Shown piece by piece: positions 1 through 10,184 of a DNA stretch of 64,000 nucleotides. This stretch comes from Sinohyriopsis cumingii (taxonomy: Eukaryota; Mollusca; Bivalvia; Unionida; Unionidae). The stretch's first letter is position 1. Every line of letters starts with the position of its first letter. Location of the stretch: positions 138,701,579-138,765,578 of the forward strand of contig CM068829.1 in the NCBI GenBank assembly GCA_028554795.2, read 5' to 3'. The notes beneath the pieces were generated by a model, which was not told where the DNA came from, made no database searches, and saw only the letters and a list, made by a program, of their open reading frames with translations. The position numbers were made by a program, and so were the translations under genes.

Positions 1-297
1 AACAACACGAAAGACAAAAATACATAAAAGCCAAAGGCTTAAGTACAACGATAAAAGGCACATGAAAATCATTAACGTGGAATAAAAACAAGTGTCTGTA
101 CAACATGTTTTGGGTAATGTTCTGACCAGTTCTATAGGGGGTAAGGTCACACAAGTGTCCTCCCGAAAGGGTCTTTCAGGCCTGTCCACGACAGTCCTGT
201 CCTGGGTGACGGGTTCTTCTGGCACCGTCACTAACACAGGTTGAAAAGTAACTTTTTTCTTTGGACGTTGAAAGGAAGGATCACAACTCTCGAGCAT
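1..297 (-). CDS. Partial ORF with basic/proline-rich stalk and a membrane segment
   Basis: An ATG at 297-295 opens a frame that stays open for 99 codons to the left edge, so the end is missing. It overlaps the stop of the gene before it (281-283) by 17 bases, as is common in compact viral genomes. The first part is polar (QRPKKKVTF near residue 10, then a Pro/Val/Glu-rich stretch); residues about 68-97 are strongly hydrophobic (STLMIFMCLLSLYLSLWLL) and look like a transmembrane helix. I do not recognise the family. A membrane-anchored accessory protein is inference. Confidence 0.5.
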   Translation of the reverse strand, partial: MLESCDPSFQRPKKKVTFQPVLVTVPEEPVTQDRTVVDRPERPFREDTCVTLPPIELVRTLPKTCCTDTCFYSTLMIFMCLLSLYLSLWLLCIFVFRVV

Positions 298-747
298 ACT
301 GGGCCACTTCTTGGGTCCAAGCCTCAAAATCCCATTTTTTCCAGTCACGGACATCTGTCCAATGGGAGTGTAAGTCACAAGCTACACACACATCGTCAAA
401 CACGTCTTCGGTAGCTAAAAGTTGACGAATCTTTTTTTCCCGTAGAGGTCGAGAAGTATCCAGATGAAAACGTAAGGCTTTGAGCAAAAGGAGTCTCTCG
501 TGAACATTTAAAGGCACCACTTTCATGTTGAATGGGGTGGTAAATACTGTTCGTAAAGAGTCCACAAAGAATCGGCTGGTAAACGAAATCCCAGAAAACA
601 AGTCACTAAGACACACACTATGCGTCGTCCCAAATTGAATGGATACAGTTCTTGTAATAATCGATGGTAATGATCCACGGTTTGAATATGGTCATTGAGT
701 TCCTTCCACGGAATCTGTTCAATTACATGTGACATAAGTCGTGGCAT
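281..747 (-). pseudogene. Small unknown gene C of the LPxEL group, broken by a frame change
   Basis: Two overlapping minus-strand frames (747-523 and 616-281) read as one gene of about 150 codons with a frame change near 610-625. The first carries an IPWKEL motif at residues 12-17, at the same place as LPVEL and LPKEL in the two genes before it, so the three look like diverged tandem copies. The C-terminal part is acidic and tryptophan-rich (WKKWDFEAWTQEV). The ATG at 747 overlaps the end of gene B (stop at 719); a second ATG at 735 is equally possible. Function unknown; resemblance of LPxELxxxI to an F-box start is weak. Confidence 0.5.
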
Positions 748-1210
748 GACAGCCTGTTTTTATACTCTCTTTCTTTCGGATGCAATACACGTACTTTCTA
801 GCCAGACATCTTCGTTCTCCAGTAGGGAATCTAAATCTTGCATACTGTAACCTAAACGTCAAAGTTTGTTTAGAAGTTTCCTCTTCCGCTAAGCAGATTC
901 CACGTAAAATATGTTGGTAATCCTTTAACTTGTCTTCCTCAATGCGTTGCACTAGGTGAATCTCGAAGTAACCAAAATTATGAACATGTCGATCATTGGC
1001 GACCTCAAAATTTTGAACAATGTCTGACCACTGAAACAATTTCTGACGAATCAGTTCTTTTATACCATTCAGGTACCAGTGGTTAAAGATCTGGTGACGT
1101 AACGGATGCAACTGTTCTTTACGTTTGACTTGTATTTTGACCAGCTCTCGGTAAATGCGTTCTCTTAACTCCACAGGCAAAGCACGAATGTTCTCTTGTA
1201 AACTATCCAT
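719..1210 (-). CDS. Small unknown gene B of the LPxEL group
   Basis: An intact 163-codon frame with ATG at 1210, 21 bases after the stop of gene A. Residues 11-19 read LPVELRERI, parallel to LPKELQEKI in gene A. The rest is charged and helical, with many Trp/His/Lys/Arg residues and a basic C-terminal third. No membrane segment or zinc motif is visible. Its place in a head-to-tail series with genes A and C, and the shared motif near each N terminus, suggest local duplication. An F-box-like or other adaptor role is only a guess from LPxEL. Confidence 0.6.
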   Translation of the reverse strand: MDSLQENIRALPVELRERIYRELVKIQVKRKEQLHPLRHQIFNHWYLNGIKELIRQKLFQWSDIVQNFEVANDRHVHNFGYFEIHLVQRIEEDKLKDYQHILRGICLAEEETSKQTLTFRLQYARFRFPTGERRCLARKYVYCIRKKESIKTGCHATTYVTCN

Positions 1211-1231
1211 GAATAGGCCAGTCCGTACAAT

Positions 1232-1624
1232 TCACAATCTTCTCCTAGTGCAAAAGTAATCCACATAGTGAGTAATTTCTGGCCACTGCCGTTCAGGGTA
1301 ACGTCCAAGAATGTCACTGAACTCTTTTGATGTAAACGGTCTAGAGTGATATAAGAGGACGAATGCACACTTGACCCAAAGAAATCTAACACATTGGTTG
1401 ACTTTCTTCGCTTTCCTCTTATGAATTTCTCGACACAAAATTTCTAGAGTGACCCATTGAGATTTCACTCTGGCAAACCCCTTCCAAACTTGTTTGCAAA
1501 TCTTCTCTTGCAGTTCTTTAGGTAATGATTCAATATCGTTTTTGAAATGAAGTTTAAATACTGGTCTCGGTGATGTCCAACATTTGACTCCTAACCAATC
1601 TGGTTTCTTCTTCGTCAACGACAT
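1232..1624 (-). CDS. Small unknown gene A of the LPxEL group
   Basis: An intact 130-codon frame starting with ATG at 1624, 11 bases after the stop of the first BIR gene. It carries LPKELQEKI at residues 34-42, then a basic helical stretch and a C terminus ending in Arg-Arg-Arg-Leu. It aligns by eye to gene B around the LPxELxE+I motif but is otherwise diverged. Compact spacing with its neighbours points to a shared transcript or closely nested transcripts. The family is not recognised. Confidence 0.6.
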   Translation of the reverse strand: MSLTKKKPDWLGVKCWTSPRPVFKLHFKNDIESLPKELQEKICKQVWKGFARVKSQWVTLEILCREIHKRKAKKVNQCVRFLWVKCAFVLLYHSRPFTSKEFSDILGRYPERQWPEITHYVDYFCTRRRL

Positions 1625-1635
1625 GGTAAGTTACT

Positions 1636-2274
1636 TCAATGTCTCGGTCCTACTAAAGGTAAGTAATGACAATTCGGTGACCATCGAGCATGTTCTACGT
1701 AGGCCGAATCTTGTGGTTCCCAGTGGTGAAGTGACACACCGCAACTGAAGCACTTGACTTTATCTCCTTCGCCCAAGTAGAACAATCCAGCTCTGGCTAA
1801 TTCTTCGGGGGTCGGTCCTCCCAGATACTTAGGCCATTTTCCTTTGAACGATTGAAGACGATTTTCAAAGTCGCAGTATTCCGACAAACGCACAGGAAAC
1901 GAATATTTGTCTTTCACAGGTTCGTTTCTATGAGGGTTGGGTGACATGGACAGGAGTTTGCTCAGAGCTGGATGACATCCGTAGAGGGGTAGACGTGAAG
2001 GTGAACATCCACCTTTAAAACGAAGCCCAGTAAAGTGTCCAAGAGGACGAGCGGCATCGCTTTCGCATCCCTCAGGTTTGGCACGCACAGCATCACTTTC
2101 CATGATAGGGGTAGTGAGAACAAAGTTCCCATGATGCTTTACGGCATCGCTAAGGTCACAGCGTACAGCATCGTTCCCATCGCAAGGCTCACAATCGCAT
2201 TCCACTTCAGAAGCCCCACACTTGAATTGTGCCTTTCTAAACAACTTGTTCTGTGTTTCTCTGAAAGTATTCAT
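1636..2274 (-). CDS. Single-BIR (IAP-like) protein, gene 1
   Basis: BIR domains bind zinc and, in inhibitor-of-apoptosis proteins, contact caspases or caspase activators. Counting from the ATG at 2274, residues about 134-204 form a full BIR: YCDFENRLQSF, the EELARAGLFYLG segment, then C-x2-C (CFSC), 16 residues to the His of EHARW, and 6 residues to the last Cys, so all four zinc ligands are present. The first ~120 residues hold a Cys-rich patch and a degenerate SDAVR-type repeat of unknown role. There is no RING. The same frame extends upstream to 2304 only through a GTG; a TATA box at 2333-2341 favours the ATG. Viral IAP-like proteins usually block host cell death; that role here is inference. 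Confidence 0.8.
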   Translation of the reverse strand: MNTFRETQNKLFRKAQFKCGASEVECDCEPCDGNDAVRCDLSDAVKHHGNFVLTTPIMESDAVRAKPEGCESDAARPLGHFTGLRFKGGCSPSRLPLYGCHPALSKLLSMSPNPHRNEPVKDKYSFPVRLSEYCDFENRLQSFKGKWPKYLGGPTPEELARAGLFYLGEGDKVKCFSCGVSLHHWEPQDSAYVEHARWSPNCHYLPLVGPRH

Positions 2275-2332
2275 CTTGTTCGCTCGGTCTTGGTAGGTAG
2301 CCACAATGAACTATCGATCTTGACCATAGTCC

Positions 2333-2341
2333 CTTTTTATA
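2333..2341 (-). promoter_or_regulatory. TATA box for BIR gene 1
   Basis: Read on the minus strand the sequence is TATAAAAAG. It lies about 60 bases before the ATG at 2274, which would put a start site near 2308 and leave a short leader. It sits at the very end of BIR gene 2, so the genes are probably transcribed separately despite their close spacing. Confidence 0.5.
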
Positions 2342-2794
2342 CTAGTCGCAATGCAGTCTCAAGCTTGTACATCGTTCCTTTTTTATGTTTTTTATGTCTA
2401 GTTTTGGAAGGTACCTTCTCTAAGGTGCCGTCATCACTGTACCGTAGTGTCATGGGTGGAAAGGCCATAGAAAGGTAAGAACAGTGCGGAGACCATCGAA
2501 TATGTTCCAGAATAGCTGAATCTTTATAGATACATAGATCCATTCGTAACTTCAGTCCGCAAGCGAAACACTGTACTTCGTATCCCAATCCTGACTCAGG
2601 TCCCAAGTAGACAGATCCTGTTCTAGCTAAAATATGCGAAGAAGGTAATCCTTTCCTATCCGTAGGCCATGCTTGAAACGTGTCCAATCGACGGGCACAA
2701 TCACAATAGGCAGGCAAGAAAACCGGAAAATGGTAGGGTTTGAACTTGGAGTTCTCATCAGGTTTCTCACTGGATTCTTTCTGTGTGAAGTCAT
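2337..2794 (-). pseudogene. Second single-BIR (IAP-like) gene, probably broken near its start
   Basis: The frame ending at 2337 encodes a BIR: YCDCARRLDTF, an ILARTGSVYLG segment, C-x2-C (CFAC), a His in LEHIRW and a Cys six residues on. The second Cys-to-His spacing is 18 rather than the usual 16 and the usual Trp-Glu pair after CxxC is missing, so it is a diverged BIR. Homology to BIR gene 1 runs upstream of 2717 (PYHFPV versus YSFPV), but that frame has no ATG back to a stop near 2837. The ATG that suits the TATA box lies at 2794 in another frame. A frame change between 2794 and about 2740 is likely. No RING is present. Confidence 0.65.
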
Positions 2795-2817
2795 CCTTCT
2801 GGTGGGTGGCTATCCGC

Positions 2818-5800
2818 TTACAACCAATGTTTTATACCAATATGTCCATACGGCAAAGTAAAGTGGTTGGGCAGTCGCACTCGCTTCTGGTACACGATTT
2901 GATAGACTTCTTCCAAGGGTCGACTGACGATGTGGTGAGTGGGTAAACGTACAATCTTGTTGGGTTGATAGGTGGTCACTTTAAAGTGTTCATCCTCTCC
3001 CGATTGCAAGGCTTCTTTCAATACCCCAAAGCTGACCACACGACTGGTACGATAATTCAGAGTCAATCCTTTCACTTTACACTGCGTGTGCACTTCTCCT
3101 TGTGGGTCCCGGTATTCGTAGCCGTAATTTTTTTGACCGCCACTGATGAAACTTAGAATCTTGTCGTCGGGATGCTCGTCTGTCCAGGCTCCTAAACGGT
3201 CTCCTTCGATGTCAGGGTGCTGTTGACTCGGGTGATGGATGTAAATGCAACTGTCCGTGTCAAAGTACAGAACGTGTTCCCCTAACAGTTCTAAAGCTTC
3301 GTACAATTTTAAGCGAGCATGAGCTGTCACGTAAGCCGCAATGATGACATTTCCAAAAGGGTCGTCTTGTACAAAGTCCAGATCTTCTTCGTAATTGACC
3401 AAGATCAAATCCTCGCGAACGACATCCACGTGTTTCATGAATTTGGTTTTGTCGTGAATCATCTGGAAGTAGCGGGAAGGTTCTGTCAAATACTCCGTCT
3501 TGGGTAAACATGGACGTTGTGCCATTTTACCCCACAAGCAATTTAACATCACTTTGGCAAACGATCGCCTGCCTTCGTTTTTCTCGATGTGATCTAAAGT
3601 AATGCCTTCTTGTGCCCAGTATTTCTCTTTGAATGTCTTTTGGTCTTCGGGAGCTTGACACCAGGAAGGATAGCCACTGGCTTCTTGTTTCAGTTTCAAA
3701 AAGGCATCCACGTAGTCGGCGAAAATGCCTTTCTACGTGGGGTCACCCTTGTGGTATTGTTGTGTCTTGGGAAAGTGACAAATTTCGTACACTTCTAACA
3801 GTTGGTATCCCATGTCCAGAGCTTTGAACAATTCTTCGCTGACCCACGTCCCCGTCAAGGCCCGTTCTTCCTGGGTGTGATGACAAGGTTGGTCTTGGTT
3901 GCACGTTTCGGCACAAGTACGGCACAAAGGAAACATCAGTTTGCCTTGGCAATGGTGAGGTAGCACAGGATGGTAAAAGTTAGTGGGAGGCAAGACTTTC
4001 CACTTGATCAGACCTTCGTATTGTCGAATGTTTTTCAGGTCGATGTGTTACGTCAACAATTGTGGGTGTCCTGCAGACAATATTTGCACACGTAGGGATA
4101 CAGCGAACACACGTCCAAGTATTTGATTTCTTCTCCTTTCTCTTCGTCGGCTTGGTACAGCAAACAGGTGGCATTGGTCCTTCCTCCGTACAAACTATCC
4201 TCGGGTTCAGCGGGTCCATGAACTGGTAACTTTCCACGAGGCGTTTAAACTCGGGATCGTTTTTCAAACGGTGATCATACTCGTGTTCCCACATTTCCAC
4301 CACTTGGTATCCTTCCTGTTCTAACTTTAGGCGTCGCTGACAAGTGGCCTGGTACAAGTCTTCCATGGTTCGTTGTAAAAACTGATTTTTAGTGCCACGG
4401 TCAGGGTAAAAGACGGACATCCGTGAAATAAGCAACCGTTAAACTCGTACACGATCTTGGGGTTTTCTAAGTCCCAGCCATCGACCGAATGCGTTCCGAT
4501 GGTCTTTTTGCCTCCCCCGTTGCGGGCATGCTGAATCCTTTTGTCTTCCTTGTCGCACAAGTAATGTAACCAGCGTATGGCTTTGACCGAGTATTGACGT
4601 TTGACATAGTTGGTCGTTTGAGGACTGATGACAGCCACGGTGTTTTCAGGCATGAATCGTTGCCGGTACACTAAGGAACACGCTTTGGCAATGGTGCAAG
4701 CTTCTTTCAAAGGATCGACCCCTCCGTGTTCCATGAACAGTTCTCGAAATTTTCCACAGCAACGTCGTAAAATGTCCACGTCGGAACGACAATACTTTAA
4801 CATTTCTTCCTGAAAGTCGAAAGGGTCCGAGGCGTGAGCCTGGTACCAAGCGTAGAAAGCTTCTCGTTGTTTGGTACGCATGTTGTCAGGGTCGTAATAG
4901 TGAGCCTCGGGCAAATGGGGTAGAACGACGTGTTGATTGGCTTTCGTATTGAAAAAGTGTGGAAAGTACCCTTTAGCCATTTCTGTCATTCCAAATGTTT
5001 TAGGCATTCGACTCAAAGGCATGGCCAAATAGCTCATCGAATCTTTAAACTGTACTTGTCCCATTTGCCTTGAAAATGATTTTGGCTCCGTTCAAAGTGA
5101 CTTTAGGACGCTCAGTGCCTTGTTCCGTATGTGTTGCTCTCGATTATTATAACCATGGTCACATTTCTCACAGTAATAACCGTATCCCAGGAATGCAGTG
5201 ATACTGGTAATGGTATCGAACTGGTCATCGTGATAATATACATGAATGTATTTTCCATCCTTAAAGTCTTTCCCTCCAAACAACAGAGGTCCGCGCACTT
5301 CTTGAGGGTGCAGTTTCAAGGTGTAGAATGGAGCTAGGACATCTTGCAATTTTTGCATTTCAGGAATGCCGCAGGGTGTGTCTTTGGACAGGCCGGCTTG
5401 TTGCAACAGGAGTTCTGCTTCACTTCGTTGTTTGGCTCGGTTCGATTTTCGAATGTTCTTCCAGTCTCTTTTCCATTCTACCGTGTCGTTCTTGTCGGCA
5501 TAGGTTCGTCCCACCACGATGACTCGGGCTAAACACATCTGGTCTTGAGAATTGTGAATTTGGACGAGACTCTTTTTGGTACTGCGAAGGTCGTTCACCA
5601 ATAACACCTTATTGCGTTGTCCGGTCCCTTGAGGAGGAGAGACGTGGGTCATGTCCAGTGTGGCTTTTCCATCGGTGATGTCAAACTGGTCATTGGATTG
5701 TTGCACGTGTTGAATCTTGTCCATGACTTTGGAAGCGGTCAATTCTGCAGGGGTGCTAAACTTGATCCAAACAGGGGATTTCAAACCGTCGTGTTGTATG

Positions 5801-6171
5801 GAGAGTCTCAAGCGATCGTCTTCTTTGGGTTGACATTGTCGCTTGAGTGTGGTGAGCAAAGAATCCCACACCCCAGTGATGAACCCTTCTGCTTTCTCTA
5901 ACGGTACTTCGGACTTGAAGTATTTGTAAGCCGTGGTTCTAAATTTTCTAGAGGAGCGCTTTTCGGTCTCTCGAATGGAATAGTATTTTTCAGGGTTGAC
6001 TAAGGGTGGCGAACTTTGTTTAGAGAGTTCGGATTCTGGTTCACTCATGTCCTCTTCAAAATCACTGGCATGAATTTGTGCCAAGACTTCAGCCCTGGTA
6101 CGAGGCGATAGATCACGTTTCTGCCTCTTACTTTCTTCTTCTTTCTTCTCAAATGAATTGGATCGTTTCAT
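2818..6171 (-). pseudogene. Protein-primed family B DNA polymerase, decayed
   Basis: Polymerases of this family copy the element's own linear genome from a protein primer. The first frame (ATG 6171 to TGA 5092, 359 codons) has a basic NLS-like start and ends in YHDDQFDTITSITAFLG and a Cys pair with GYNNREQH, as in Polinton-type polymerases. The next piece (5064-4327) carries an exonuclease III motif (YCRSDVDIL) and a conserved FNGCLFHGCP block. Motif A (DVCSLYP) is at about 4115-4095 in yet another frame. The last piece holds KVMLNCLWGK (motif B-like) and YFDTDS (motif C), then VKGLTLNYRT. Lesions seen: the stop at 5092, frame changes around 4435-3993 and a TAG near 3734. The exonuclease I/II region expected between 5092 and 5064 is absent. 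Non-functional as it stands. Confidence 0.85.
2831..2837 (-). promoter_or_regulatory. TATA box for BIR gene 2
   Basis: TATAAAA on the minus strand, overlapping the last codons of the polymerase gene (stop at 2818-2820). It is about 40 bases before an ATG at 2794. Placing a promoter inside the end of the preceding gene fits the compact layout. Confidence 0.4.
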
Positions 6172-6305
6172 CTTGAGTGCAAAACGTCAAATGACTCAAG
6201 TTTAAACACCATAGACTAATTTATAGTCATGGCAGACCAGCGTATATAGAAGGGTGTGTGTCTTGTCCTTTCACTATTCATTTCACTCTCAAACCGAGCA
6301 CAACG
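6172..6305. promoter_or_regulatory. Divergent promoter between polymerase and CCHC genes
   Basis: This 134-bp spacer separates start codons on opposite strands. It holds TATAAAT on the minus strand (6225-6219), about 50 bases before the polymerase ATG, and TATATA on the plus strand (6243-6248), about 60 bases before the CCHC gene ATG. The two TATA boxes lie roughly 20 bases apart, so each direction has its own core promoter. Confidence 0.55.
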
Positions 6306-6746
6306 ATGGAAGAGACTAGCCAAATCGAACTTTTCATCAGAGCTTTGCGAGGGGTCATTAGAAAATTCTCTTCAGACCAGCCGATGGACTACTCTCCTTC
6401 CTTTCGAGATAAAAGTCAAGATACTTGCTATATCTGTCAAAAGAAAGGGCATTGGTCTTCAGAGTGTCCAGACCGTCAAAAAAGAAAAACAGGGGCTAGA
6501 GAAGACAAAAGTCAAGATACCTGTTATTATTATCAAGAAAAATGACATTGGTCTCCAGATTGCCTAAAAAAAGAAACAAGAGGAGCAGAAGAAGAGAGGG
6601 ATTCTTCAGAGGAAGAAAAGGAGGAAGATAGCAAACAGGTGAAGAAAAAGAAACAGGAGAAGAAAAGAAGAAGGGAAGAAAGTGAGGAGGAAGAGGAGGA
6701 GGAAAAGACTGTAACGGTGAAGAAATTTAAAAAACAGAGAGAGTAA
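6306..6746 (+). pseudogene. CCHC zinc-knuckle protein with a highly charged tail, in-frame stop
   Basis: The ATG at 6306 follows a TATA box. One zinc knuckle is intact (C-x2-C-x4-H-x4-C: CYICQKKGHWSSEC), as in nucleic-acid-binding Gag-like and cellular CCHC proteins. A second copy of the unit follows (both begin DKSQDTCY), but its second Cys is Tyr and a TGA at 6543-6545 falls before its His, giving 79 residues. The same frame then runs on to a TAA at 6744 with a Lys/Glu-rich tail, so the gene was about 146 codons. The tail is coded by a purine-rich stretch that could also be simple-sequence drift. Probable role: binding element nucleic acid (inference). Confidence 0.65.
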
Positions 6747-6827
6747 ACAAAGAAACAGAAGAAGTGAATGTACTTTTTAAAGTGCTCTGTTGTGAATTGT
6801 GAATTGGATTGTAACTATTGATAAAAG

Positions 6828-6833
6828 AATAAA
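6828..6833 (+). terminator. AATAAA polyadenylation signal
   Basis: AATAAA lies about 80 bases after the end of the CCHC gene and is followed by a GT/T-rich stretch (GTAAGTGTCTTTGGTTTTTG), the usual downstream element. So the CCHC gene uses ordinary polyadenylation, unlike the two genes to its right. Confidence 0.5.
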
Positions 6834-6950
6834 TTAAGTATAAAAAGGTAAGTGTCTTTGGTTTTTGATTTTAAAATAAGAACGTACACTCACGCACTCA
6901 TACACAGACACGTACTATAGGGTAAAATGGTTATTTTTCTTTTTGAGTTA

Positions 6951-7012
6951 TTGGCAATTGAAAGTTTATCTCTTTTCGAGGAATGTGGGTGGCCCTGAAA
7001 AGGGCCTTTGGT
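6951..7012 (-). terminator. Histone-type 3' stem-loop plus downstream element, minus strand
   Basis: Read on the minus strand: CCAAAGGCCCTTTTCAGGGC, then CACCCA. The 6-bp stem GGCCCT/AGGGCC with TTTC loop and its flanks match the consensus that ends replication-dependent histone mRNAs (bound by SLBP). About 14 bases on, CGAAAAGAGA matches the purine-rich histone downstream element that pairs with U7 snRNA. It follows a stop codon at 7032 in one of the two frames of the upstream gene. It forms an inverted repeat with 8078-8137. Confidence 0.85.
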
Positions 7013-7031
7013 TATTGGTGTAGGGGTGAGT

Positions 7032-7609
7032 TTAAGCAATCAACTTTAACTGCCTTAAGCCTTTGCCACGGCCGAGGCCTACTTCTGGACTGCGTACTGT
7101 TGATGATGATGATGATGATGATTTGGTTGAAATCACTAAGGGTGGTACGGTAGGCTTAGTCACAGGGTTGGTGTGTTTAGCTCGGAAGGTCGTATTCTCT
7201 TCGGTCGTAATAAAGAAGTCTGATACATTTGTTTCAGACTTCTTAACTCCGCTAAAATGTCTAACAGTACCGTGACCGTTTGACTTTCACACCCTTGTTT
7301 CTTTGCTGCTACTTCTTCTTCTTCTTGTTTTTTTCTTACCTCTTCTTCTTGCTGTTGTTGCTGTAGGAGAAAAGCTTGTTCCGCTTCCTTTTGCTGTTGT
7401 ATAAATTTCTCCAATTCTTCTTTCTGTCTCTGTCTAAAATTCTCCACGTGCGGTAATGAAGAAGGAGACGAAGGTTCCGGAACAAATTCTTGCGAGGTAA
7501 GAAAATCCACAAAATCCCAATTTACCTCTTCTGAAAGTAAGTCCGGGTTCCCTTGGGCGGTCTCCATTGCTGGTACACCCCAACTGATCGTTTTCTGAGT
7601 TTCCGTCAT
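7032..7609 (-). CDS. Unknown Gln/Glu-rich coiled-coil protein
   Basis: The frame from the ATG at 7609 to the stop at 7160 encodes 149 residues: an acidic N-terminal third, then about residues 56-105 dominated by Gln, Glu and Lys with heptad-like spacing (probable coiled coil), then a short hydrophobic helix and a basic patch (RPKRIRP). A TATA box lies 50 bases upstream. A second frame stays open past 7160 through a serine run and a GRGKG motif to a TAA at 7032-7034, only about 20 bases before the histone-type stem-loop, so the original gene may have used it after a frame change near 7165. The family is not recognised; it is not a histone. Confidence 0.55.
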
Positions 7610-7828
7610 GTTGAATCACTGTCGCATGGATTGACACCGCACAGGCGCTAGCGAATCTATATAGACCACGTGACGTCACAGACTGCTGTCTTCGGATTGG
7701 ATGCGGACTGCCTGAATTTTGTAACGCGTGTTTGGATTGGTCAATGAACTCAATCCGTTTCAATCCTTCCTCTACCTATAAATAAGTGCAGTTCACTGCA
7801 CTGATTCACCTGTTCTCGGCGCCTCAAG
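7610..7828. promoter_or_regulatory. Divergent promoter with CRE/E-box, CCAAT and two TATA boxes
   Basis: The spacer between two divergent genes has a minus-strand TATA box (CTATATAG, 7658-7665) and a plus-strand TATAAATA (7777-7784). Next to the first is an E-box CACGTG (7667-7672) overlapping a full CRE palindrome TGACGTCA (7671-7678). Two ATTGG (inverted CCAAT) elements occur near 7695 and 7734. This is the layout of divergent metazoan histone-gene promoters, matching the 3' ends. Direct sequence evidence is only the motifs; factor binding is inference. Confidence 0.6.
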
Positions 7829-8059
7829 ATGTGGACCACGGTCGAATCATCCACCCTTGTTTCTTCAATGATGTTTAGGACGGACATGCTAATGTATGTC
7901 CGATCCAAGTGGACAGTTGTCCACAAGTCAGACACCAGTCTGTGGATACGAAGAGTCCATGTGGAAAGACAAGGATGCCTCAAGAGGACTCTGATTTATG
8001 GCCCTGCAGTAAGACGCAGCTTGAGGACAAGAAGATGCCGCAGATGCCCTTTATGTTAA
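7829..8059 (+). CDS. Unknown small basic protein with histone-type 3' end
   Basis: A 76-codon frame whose ATG lies about 45 bases after TATAAATA and whose stop lies about 20 bases before a canonical histone stem-loop, exactly the layout of a histone gene. The product is not a recognisable histone: it is rich in Met, Val, Arg and Ser with an Arg-rich C terminus ending in two Cys pairs (RRCRRCPLC). It may be a relic of a longer gene. Coding status rests on promoter and 3'-end context rather than homology. Confidence 0.45.
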   Translation: MWTTVESSTLVSSMMFRTDMLMYVRSKWTVVHKSDTSLWIRRVHVERQGCLKRTLIYGPAVRRSLRTRRCRRCPLC

Positions 8060-8077
8060 GGGCTTATTAACATAAAC

Positions 8078-8125
8078 CCAAAGGCCCTTTTCAGGGCCAC
8101 CCATATTTCTCGAAAAGAGATAGAG
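8078..8125 (+). terminator. Histone-type 3' stem-loop plus downstream element, plus strand
   Basis: Stem GGCCCT (8083-8088), loop TTTC, stem AGGGCC (8093-8098), with CCAAA before and ACCCA after, match the metazoan histone mRNA 3' consensus. CGAAAAGAGATAGAG (8111-8125) is a good histone downstream element at the expected distance. The hairpin is identical to the minus-strand copy at 6991-7006 and the likeness extends to about 8137. Confidence 0.88.
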
Positions 8126-8149
8126 TTTCAATTGCCTACCCCATTTTTT

Positions 8150-8400
8150 CCCATGTTCAATTCCCCTTGTCCCTAGAATTGCTTTTTTCTCCCATGTTAA
8201 ATTTCCCTTGTCCCTAGACAGTCCCACGATTTATTCCCCATGTTAATTCCCCTTGTCCCTATATCGTCCCACGATTTTTCCCCATGTTAATTCCCCTTGT
8301 CCCTATATCGTCCCACGATTTTTCCCCATGTTAAATTTACATAGTCCCTACATCGTCCCAGGGGTGTTTTTAATGATAAGTCCCATTGTCCCTGAATCGT
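8150..8400. repeat. 44-bp tandem repeat at the probable element border
   Basis: About five to six copies of a unit of the form CCCATGTTAATTCCCCTTGT followed by CCCTATATCGTCCCACGATT. Starts at 8191, 8237, 8281 and 8325 give a period of 41-46, mostly 44. The two central copies are nearly identical; the outer ones are degenerate. Composition to the right is host-like. It may be a terminal or subterminal repeat of the element. Confidence 0.75.
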
Positions 8401-10184
8401 CCCCCTTCACTACTGACGACTACCAATGAAACTCTCTACAGTTTTTAACTGAATGAGAAAACTTTAGCTAAACACACGGTAAATAACACCACCATACTCA
8501 GTGGTTTCAGTGATGATGTGACAAAAGCGTACCGGGAAAAAAAAAAAACATGCTTTTTACGAAGTCATTGTAGAAAATTATACTCAAATACATGATGATG
8601 TTACTCAACACATTGTAAACAAGCAAAGTACCTCGATTTATGGCTTGATCAATCTGTAGAATGAATGCATGTTTTAATTAGATTTAACAATTAGTTATTT
8701 TCGTAAGTCCATACTTTTTCAAACGTATGCAGAAACTTTACTCCAACATATTGTGATTTTACTCAGCGAACCAGAAATTAAGAAATATTTACTTATAGTG
8801 TCTTCAGTCCATTGAAAGCAAACACCACTATGTGTAGTCATGAAATCACATGAATCTTTAGCCTCGACAACAAAGTATAATTTACTTGATTAATATTGCA
8901 TTTCTATATATCTTATTCTTTAATGTCATTCATATAACTCCTTATAACATTATGTATATCTGTATATGCGCTGATGCCCTTTAACTGATTTTTATTTTTA
9001 CCTTTATTTTCTTTTTTATTACTTTCATATAAATTATAATTTTAATTTCATTAAAGCAAAGCATACATAAATATCGTATAATTGTTATTATTATTGGAGT
9101 ATATGTTGAAGTACATTGGAGTGAAAAGACATGCCCGTCCCAGGCTATATTTTCCTCTCTCCTTTTCGTGCACAATGAGTACTGAGGCATTGATGTTGTT
9201 TCGGCAGTGAAATCTGTGACCCAGTTCACGGTAATTTGTTTATAGTCCAACCTCTCACAAAAATGCTGGAAAATCTATGACAAGAACTTAAACGTGAGTT
9301 CATCTTTAAGGTACTTGAGAATAAGAGATGATTTATTATCATTTGTACACAGTGGAAAGCTCAGTACTTAGAAAAAATGTAAAGAATATATCGTAAAATT
9401 AATTGTGATCTGATTGATTCTAACTACAGTTGTGAAGGTGCTGAAACTTTTTGATGCGAACGCTGCACTGTCGCACTTGATTTGGGGAAACACTAGAATG
9501 TGTACATCTAACGGTAAATCAAGCACGTCCAACACTACAACCAGCGTAAATCAGACGACAACGTTAATCTTTGCAACAAGTCTATAGAAGTCTTTATCTA
9601 AAATGTATTAGCTTAACATCGACATCCTGAAGTTAAAGGAATGAATATACTTATTTATTATATGTATTTGAGATGATTTTAGCTCAGAAGTTTAGGTTGT
9701 AAGTAGAGATTTAAAAGTCAACTGGTCGATGATCACCATATCAATAGATAGGACTACTTCATGAAGTTTTGAAGAAAAACAAAATCTACACATACAAACA
9801 AATATACCATGTTGAAGGTATTGATGAGTCATTTTCACAAATGCTTTCCTTTTTAGCCTATTTTTATTTTGAAGGGAGAAAAGGTAATTTGAAGCTTTGA
9901 GCCTTTTAATTTATTTCAAGTAAGATATTTTCTGTTTATCGCTAGTTTAATGTGATTATTATGTTCATGGCTGATACTGTATAACGATAGGCATTTTATT
10001 TAATGTTTTAATAAAATGGTTCAGTACAATCTCCAAGATACAAAAAATGTTAGGGAATAAAACATTTTAATTGATCAGTTTACTGGGTTCTGCCATTTTC
10101 TGTCATTGTATTACCGGTACTTTAGTAAAAGTCATACAGGTCATGTAGGCGTTCAACACAAAATATTTCGAATATGTGGCCTTA

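What the first reader, a model, noticed from the sequence alone, without database searches (positions are those of the whole stretch)
6951..8125. Two non-histone genes of a viral-type element end in canonical histone 3' stem-loops
A divergent gene pair (7609 to 7032 minus, 7829 to 8059 plus) is closed on each side by an identical GGCCCT-TTTC-AGGGCC hairpin with the right flanks and a purine-rich downstream element 14-15 bases later. Stop codons lie about 20 bases before each hairpin. Neither product looks like a histone, and both sit beside a protein-primed DNA polymerase gene. Known: such ends tie mRNA to S phase through SLBP and U7. Inference: the element captured histone-type 3' ends (perhaps a whole divergent histone promoter cassette) so that these genes are expressed when host DNA replicates. 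I know of no description of this in Polinton/adintovirus-like elements.
Basis: partly seen in the sequence, partly recalled or inferred. Interest (0 to 1): 0.88.

Follow-up and report, generated by a model that had tools for sequence, protein, structure and literature searches.

The report
Virus-like genes with histone-type 3' ends
Small non-histone genes of a virus-like mobile element in an animal genome end in the same RNA hairpin and downstream signal as the host's own histone genes, so the element probably borrows the host's DNA-replication-linked machinery to finish and control these messages.

Summary
Both hairpins are strong Rfam RF00032 histone stem-loops (42.5 and 41.5 bits), in sense with their genes, 23-25 nt after the stop codons. 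Neither gene family matches a histone.

Three results carry the case. (1) In the one host histone repeat read, five stem-loops follow five histone genes. The H2B 16-mer is identical to the element's. The downstream heptamer GAAAAGA starts 13-14 nt after the stem in four of five, and at 13 nt in 54 of 61 intact element hairpins. The gene pair aligns with that repeat only at its two 3' ends (best H2B, 68 nt, 82%). (2) In 40 copies the hairpins vary less than other noncoding sites, though not less than many coding or promoter stretches. (3) A second gene set beside similar terminal repeats has two unrelated same-strand genes, each followed by a histone stem-loop, one with a compensatory G-C to A-U pair.

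Best reading: a Polinton/Maverick-type element uses captured histone 3' ends for end-proximal genes. SLBP/U7 processing is very likely; S-phase or embryonic timing is inferred. Nine paper searches found no description.

The parts
7032..7609 (-). gene A_minus (non-histone), frameshifted in this copy: open frame 7609-7160, conserved C-terminus in another frame ending at 7032
   Evidence: 21 homologues; open in 23 of 40 copies, pN/pS 0.54
6991..7006 (-). histone-type stem-loop after A_minus
   Evidence: RF00032 41.5 bits at 6967-7011; exact in 31 of 40 copies
6968..6980 (-). U7-type downstream element CTCGAAAAGAGAT
   Evidence: same heptamer and spacing as host histone genes; pi 0.045
7610..7828 (.). 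divergent promoter with TATA (7777), two ATTGG boxes, CACGTG and TGACGTCA
   Evidence: no match in the host histone repeat read
7829..8059 (+). gene A_plus, 76 aa, pI 11.3
   Evidence: 2 homologues; open in 34 of 40 copies, pN/pS 0.25
8083..8098 (+). histone-type stem-loop after A_plus
   Evidence: RF00032 42.5 bits at 8078-8123; exact in 30 of 40 copies
8109..8121 (+). U7-type downstream element CTCGAAAAGAGAT
8143..8403 (.). tandem repeats of about 44 nt near the end of the element
   Evidence: similar repeats beside the B gene set
2818..6171 (-). protein-primed-type PolB, broken into several frames
6306..6833 (+). zinc-knuckle ORF (6306-6545) with AATAAA at 6828
1636..2831 (-). two BIR-domain ORFs

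Best explanation
These are functional histone-type mRNA 3' ends on non-histone, end-proximal genes of a multicopy Polinton/Maverick-type element. The signal has a stem-loop (SLBP site), an ACCCA-type cleavage region and a U7-type downstream element that matches the host's own histone genes in sequence and spacing. It was most likely captured from a histone gene 3' end (nearest here to H2B) and then kept and spread from gene to gene within the elements. Shown by sequence: presence, sense orientation, recurrence, low variation, one compensatory pair, similarity to host histone 3' ends. Inferred: cleavage without poly(A) by SLBP, U7 snRNP and CPSF73, and from that an abundance tied to cells that replicate DNA (S phase, germline or early embryo), when a protein-primed DNA element can replicate too.
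For: RF00032 hits in sense at both genes. Host histone repeat: five RF00032 hits; H2B 16-mer identical to the element's; GAAAAGA 13 or 14 nt after the stem in H3, H4 and H1 and, read from the printed sequence, 13 nt in H2B. GAAAAGA at +13 in 54 of 61 intact hairpins of the 40 A copies and at +13 or +14 in 14 of 15 B1 hairpins. The pair aligns with the host repeat only at its two 3' ends. Sites with a variant in at least 3 of 40 copies: hairpins 1 of 32, other noncoding sites 126 of 481, p 0.001; 64 of 400 without the repeats, p 0.03. B genes: own stem-loops, compensatory A-U pair in 15 of 17. Read-through relatives P0007 and P0023 encode the motif just behind the conserved C-terminus of each gene family.
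Against: No transcript data. The hairpins are not the least variable stretches: they rank 309 and 389 of 1276 16-nt windows. Against all sites the hairpin p is only 0.04 and the HDE p 0.25. A_minus pN/pS (0.54) is close to the promoter control (0.61). 7 of 40 copies have A(A/T)TAAA within about 160 nt after each stop, so poly(A) ends are possible there. The H2A gene of the host has GAAAAGG. U7 was not found, but its control was silent everywhere. Only the best-scored copies were seen (40 of 6010 and 75 of 589,472 first-look candidates).
Confidence: 0.85

Rival explanations
1. The 3' ends are processed as histone ends, but the benefit is not S-phase timing: it is poly(A)-independent stability and translation where SLBP is plentiful, such as oocytes and cleavage embryos.
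For: The same sequence evidence; germline expression would help a heritable element (inference).
Against: None from these data; it differs from the main reading only in the biological use.
Confidence: 0.3
2. Captured histone 3' ends that are carried along without function; the copies look alike because they are recent.
For: Copies are 93-98% identical to the window, hairpin variation ranks in the ordinary range of windows, and about a quarter of the hairpins per end carry a change (9 and 10 of 40).
Against: The 5 nt between ACCCA and the HDE vary more than tenfold as much as the hairpin; the B1 ends are otherwise diverged yet keep pairing through a compensatory change; the host spacing of GAAAAGA is kept.
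Confidence: 0.07
3. The inverted hairpins are recombination or replication structures that only resemble histone ends.
For: The A ends are a 59-nt inverted repeat; interval variants occur at both ends and L056 looks rearranged at the hairpins.
Against: B1 and B2 hairpins are direct, not inverted, and each follows its own gene in sense; the HDE and its spacing match host histones.
Confidence: 0.04
4. Both genes are decayed host histone genes.
For: Only the 3' ends are histone-like.
Against: No histone Pfam match at E up to 1 in either window ORF, 16 relatives of A_minus or 2 of A_plus; no match of the coding regions to the host repeat; A_plus is under purifying selection as a 76-aa protein.
Confidence: 0.01

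Closest known systems
Replication-dependent histone mRNA 3' end (Rfam RF00032; SLBP, U7 snRNP, CPSF73)
   Same: stem-loop, loop, flanks, cleavage region, downstream element and spacing, compared with this host's own genes
   Different: sits on genes that do not match histones, in a mobile element
Polinton/Maverick elements and adintoviruses
   Same: PolB of the Polinton type; BIR ORFs; multicopy
   Different: no histone-type 3' ends described in the papers found; integrase and capsid genes not seen because the element leaves the window
Histone-related proteins of animal DNA viruses (Histoid of adomaviruses, passage of PMC11071296; bracovirus H4, recalled)
   Same: histone-related material in animal viruses
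   Different: those carry a histone-like protein; here only the RNA 3' end is histone-like

Membership tests
Histone 3' stem-loop (RF00032) | covariance-model score over the curated cut-off | tested here: met
   42.5 and 41.5 against 34 bits; B2 ends 44-46 bits; B1 ends 30-31 bits, below the cut-off, and L057 B1 not listed
Histone 3' stem-loop (RF00032) | downstream element at host spacing | tested here: met
   GAAAAGA at +13 in 54 of 61 A hairpins, +13/+14 in 14 of 15 B1 hairpins; host +13 or +14 in four of five genes
Histone 3' stem-loop (RF00032) | base pairing of the downstream element with host U7 | tested here: inconclusive
   no U7 hit, control silent; pairing with a recalled human U7 no better than shuffles
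Histone 3' stem-loop (RF00032) | cleaved, non-polyadenylated mRNA | not testable with these tools
   no RNA data
Replication-dependent histone gene | encodes a histone | tested here: not met
Polinton/Maverick (adintovirus-like) | protein-primed-type PolB | tested here: met
   DNA_pol_B_2 E 3e-12; phage PolB profile E 1e-18; Polinton-like PolBs of molluscs and others
Polinton/Maverick (adintovirus-like) | integrase, capsid genes, protease, ATPase, terminal inverted repeats with target duplication | not tested
   the element runs off the left edge of the window; one end only is visible

The most novel reading that the evidence does not exclude
A lineage of virus-like Polinton elements has built a histone-mimic regulon: several unrelated end-proximal genes each carry their own host-matched histone 3' end, exchanged and kept gene by gene, so that they are made in DNA-replicating host cells through SLBP and U7, while a neighbouring gene keeps an ordinary poly(A) signal. 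This would be a case of a DNA virus-like element wiring its own genes into the histone mRNA cycle.
Probability: 0.6. Interest if true: 0.92.

Novelty: new variant of a known kind. Interest (0 to 1): 0.87.

Why it matters
The histone 3' end is regarded as nearly private to replication-dependent histone genes (recalled). Finding it on unrelated virus-type genes, matched to the host's own downstream element, would show that the S-phase mRNA pathway can be taken over as a portable module. It offers natural non-histone substrates to test what the signal alone does, and a concrete idea of how protein-primed elements time their gene expression to host replication or early embryogenesis.

Tried and rejected
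Viral contigs (IMG/VR): six scans (PolB piece, stem-loop pattern, A_minus alignment, PolB alignment, A_plus alignment, second stem-loop pattern) gave no usable relative. The 5 loci and the one distant PolB locus L006 had no RF00032 hit at gathering level. That collection seems poor in animal Polintons, so this says little. Genome contigs: nothing in two scans. PDB sequence search: nothing at E up to 1 for either protein family. Structure prediction was never accepted, so the folds are unknown. Pairing of the downstream elements with a recalled human U7 5' end: no better than shuffles. E2F site and octamer in the promoter: none. U7 in the host: inconclusive. Decayed-histone origin: rejected. 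Whole divergent histone cassette: rejected for the one host repeat read.

Lack of canonical poly(A) hexamers on the minus strand 1-6990 (0 seen, shuffle mean 5.4, 0 of 400 shuffles at 0) fits the main reading, but it is one decayed copy and coding constraint was not modelled; I do not lean on it.

Papers: PMC11071296 seen as passages and one section; PMC9756948 as passages; all others as search listings only. The searches behind the statement that nothing was found in print are (nine answered; one search was an argument error). An adintovirus paper asked for by DOI was not held.

Full report
What is there. Its first 8.4 kb hold one end of a decayed element: a PolB gene in several broken frames, two BIR ORFs, a zinc-knuckle ORF, and a divergent gene pair next to tandem repeats. 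The PolB relatives (434 at E up to 0.001, 120 listed) are Polinton-like polymerases of oysters, abalone, a nemertean, a crinoid, corals and insects at roughly 37-50%, and of short unnamed contigs at up to 84-88%. The host is probably a mollusc or a related animal; that is inference. The element runs off the left edge, so its other genes and other end were not seen.

The observation. Both genes of the pair end in GGCCCTTTTCAGGGCC hairpins scoring 42.5 and 41.5 bits against RF00032, the only gathering-level Rfam matches in the window. Both are in sense with their gene, 25 and 23 nt after the stop. The two 3' ends form a 59-nt inverted repeat. The minus gene is frameshifted in this copy; the plus gene is intact.

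The genes. A_minus has 21 homologues in a set of 5.8 billion proteins, 16 of them 193-230 aa, with an acidic N-terminus, a Q/E-rich middle and a basic stretch. It reads like a nuclear regulator, which is inference. A_plus has 2 homologues and is a 76-aa protein of pI 11.3. Neither family has a histone match. Among 40 genomic copies A_plus is open in 34 with pN/pS 0.25, so it is a real gene. A_minus is open in 23 with pN/pS 0.54, close to the promoter control of 0.61, so selection on it is not shown by this test.

Relatives outside this genome. P0007 and P0023 read on beyond the usual C-terminus. In a back-translation scan of the 143 proteins held, these two alone can encode the 24-nt hairpin motif with 2 incompatible positions. 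The next best have 5, and 300 shuffles of each reach 4 at best. The motif lies right behind the conserved C-terminus of A_minus in P0007 and of A_plus in P0023. By my reading of the codons each has one change that breaks a stem pair, as in decayed copies. The HDE is compatible in P0007 and has 2 differences in P0023.

Copies in this genome. The DNA search scored 40 copies of the pair, the window among them, of 6010 first-look candidates; the others are 93-98% identical and the closest are favoured. I fetched the 39 others. The exact 16-mer is kept in 31 of 40 minus ends and 30 of 40 plus ends, both in 25. Diversity is 0.025 and 0.028 in the hairpins, 0.045 and 0.040 in the HDE, 0.35 and 0.33 in the 5 nt between ACCCA and HDE, 0.109 and 0.366 further downstream, 0.052 in the promoter, 0.058 and 0.042 in the plus and minus ORF. 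Sites with a variant in at least 3 copies: hairpins 1 of 32, other noncoding 126 of 481 (p 0.001), or 64 of 400 without the repeats that align poorly (p 0.03). The HDE has 2 of 26 (p 0.02). Against all sites the p values are only 0.04 (hairpins) and 0.25 (HDE), and the hairpins rank 309 and 389 of 1276 16-nt windows. So the hairpins are constrained about like coding sequence, not exceptionally. Some variants of the short interval occur at both the minus and the plus end, so the two ends seem to exchange sequence.

A second gene set. RF00032 in the whole genome gave 75 scored places, all over cut-off, of 589,472 first-look candidates. I read 55 of the 75; 20 were not fetched. By tblastn with the A and B proteins, 35 are A-pair copies (L069 also has B2) and 20 carry other genes, B1 and B2; each of the 55 thus holds an element gene. 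B loci compared with the window share sequence like its terminal repeats. B1 and B2 lie on the same strand, one behind the other, each followed by a histone stem-loop in most of the five loci examined in detail: B2 in 5 of 5 (44-46 bits), B1 in 4 of 5 (30-31 bits, below gathering). The B2 hairpin was the search target, so its intactness is selected. The B1 hairpin was not: 17 of 19 loci with a B1 match have it with at least 5 of 6 pairs. In 15 of those 17 the stem is AGCCCT/AGGGCT, an A-U pair in place of G-C at the first position, that is, a compensatory change. PolB or zinc-knuckle matches lie in 13 of the 35 A loci and 1 of the 20 B loci; most loci end too soon to tell. In that B locus (L097) repeats lie between PolB/zinc knuckle and B2, so I cannot say whether they are one element.

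The host's histone genes. PF00125 found 150 scored places of 662 candidates, mostly in tandem repeats of about 8.27 kb. One repeat (L119) has five RF00032 hits of 35-39 bits, all on one strand. The stem-loops are GGCCCTTTTTAGGGCC twice (H3, H4), GGCCCTTTTCAGGGCC (H2B), GGCCCTTTTAAGGGCC (H2A) and GGTCCTTTTCAGGACC (H1); gene names are my reading of the ORFs, H4 by elimination. The H2B 16-mer equals that of the element. GAAAAGA begins 13 nt after the stem in H3 and H4 and 14 in H1; H2A has GAAAAGG; in H2B it begins at 13 by reading the sequence printed. In the elements it begins at +13 in 54 of 61 intact A hairpins of the 40-copy set and 12 of 15 B1 hairpins, with 2 more at +14. Among the 55 RF00032 loci it is at +13 in 15 of 18 GGCCCT-type hairpins of B loci and 47 of 58 of A loci. 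The heptamer occurs 24 times on both strands of the 64 kb window. A local search of 6953-8136 against the host repeat finds only the two 3' ends, best to H2B (68 nt, 82%, E 1.4e-12); the promoter has no match at E up to 0.1.

How it most likely works. SLBP binds the stem-loop, U7 snRNP the downstream element, and CPSF73 cleaves between them, giving mRNA without poly(A) (established pathway; passages of PMC9756948). Since the element's signals match the host's own in both parts and in spacing, the step from sequence to processing is short. The step to S-phase or embryonic timing rests on how SLBP is regulated and is inference. The neighbouring zinc-knuckle ORF has an AATAAA downstream at 6828, so the element seems to use two kinds of 3' end. 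In the window copy no A(A/T)TAAA lies within the 350 nt after the plus hairpin or on the minus strand 1-6990, but 7 of 40 copies have one within about 160 nt after the minus stop and 7 of 40 after the plus stop.

Novelty. Nine paper searches found no description of histone stem-loops in Polintons, adintoviruses or other viral non-histone genes. The library lacks most subscription journals, so this does not prove absence. I file it as a new variant of a known kind: the signal is known, its use by genes of a virus-like element appears new.

Noticed in passing
window 6306-6833 (+): Zinc-knuckle ORF, convergent with A_minus and divergent from PolB, with an AATAAA at 6828 followed by a GT-rich stretch; the frame looks broken in this copy.
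   Followed up: partly
L056: PolB and zinc-knuckle flank joined to an inverted gene pair and a second, inverted flank, as if rearranged at the hairpin repeats.
   Followed up: partly
L069: A pair and a B2 gene in one 3 kb locus with three hairpins; nested or adjacent elements are possible.
   Followed up: no
window 719-1624 (-): Two ORFs with similar starts (LPxELxExIxxxxxK), perhaps paralogues; no convincing Pfam match.
   Followed up: no
window 1-6990, minus strand: No AATAAA or ATTAAA (shuffle mean 5.4; 0 of 400 shuffles at 0), so the 3' ends of PolB and BIR genes are unexplained here.
   Followed up: partly
P0021 (protein cluster): N-terminus of A_minus fused to a stretch resembling the PolB N-terminal ORF, as in a deletion derivative with the same gene order.
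   Followed up: no
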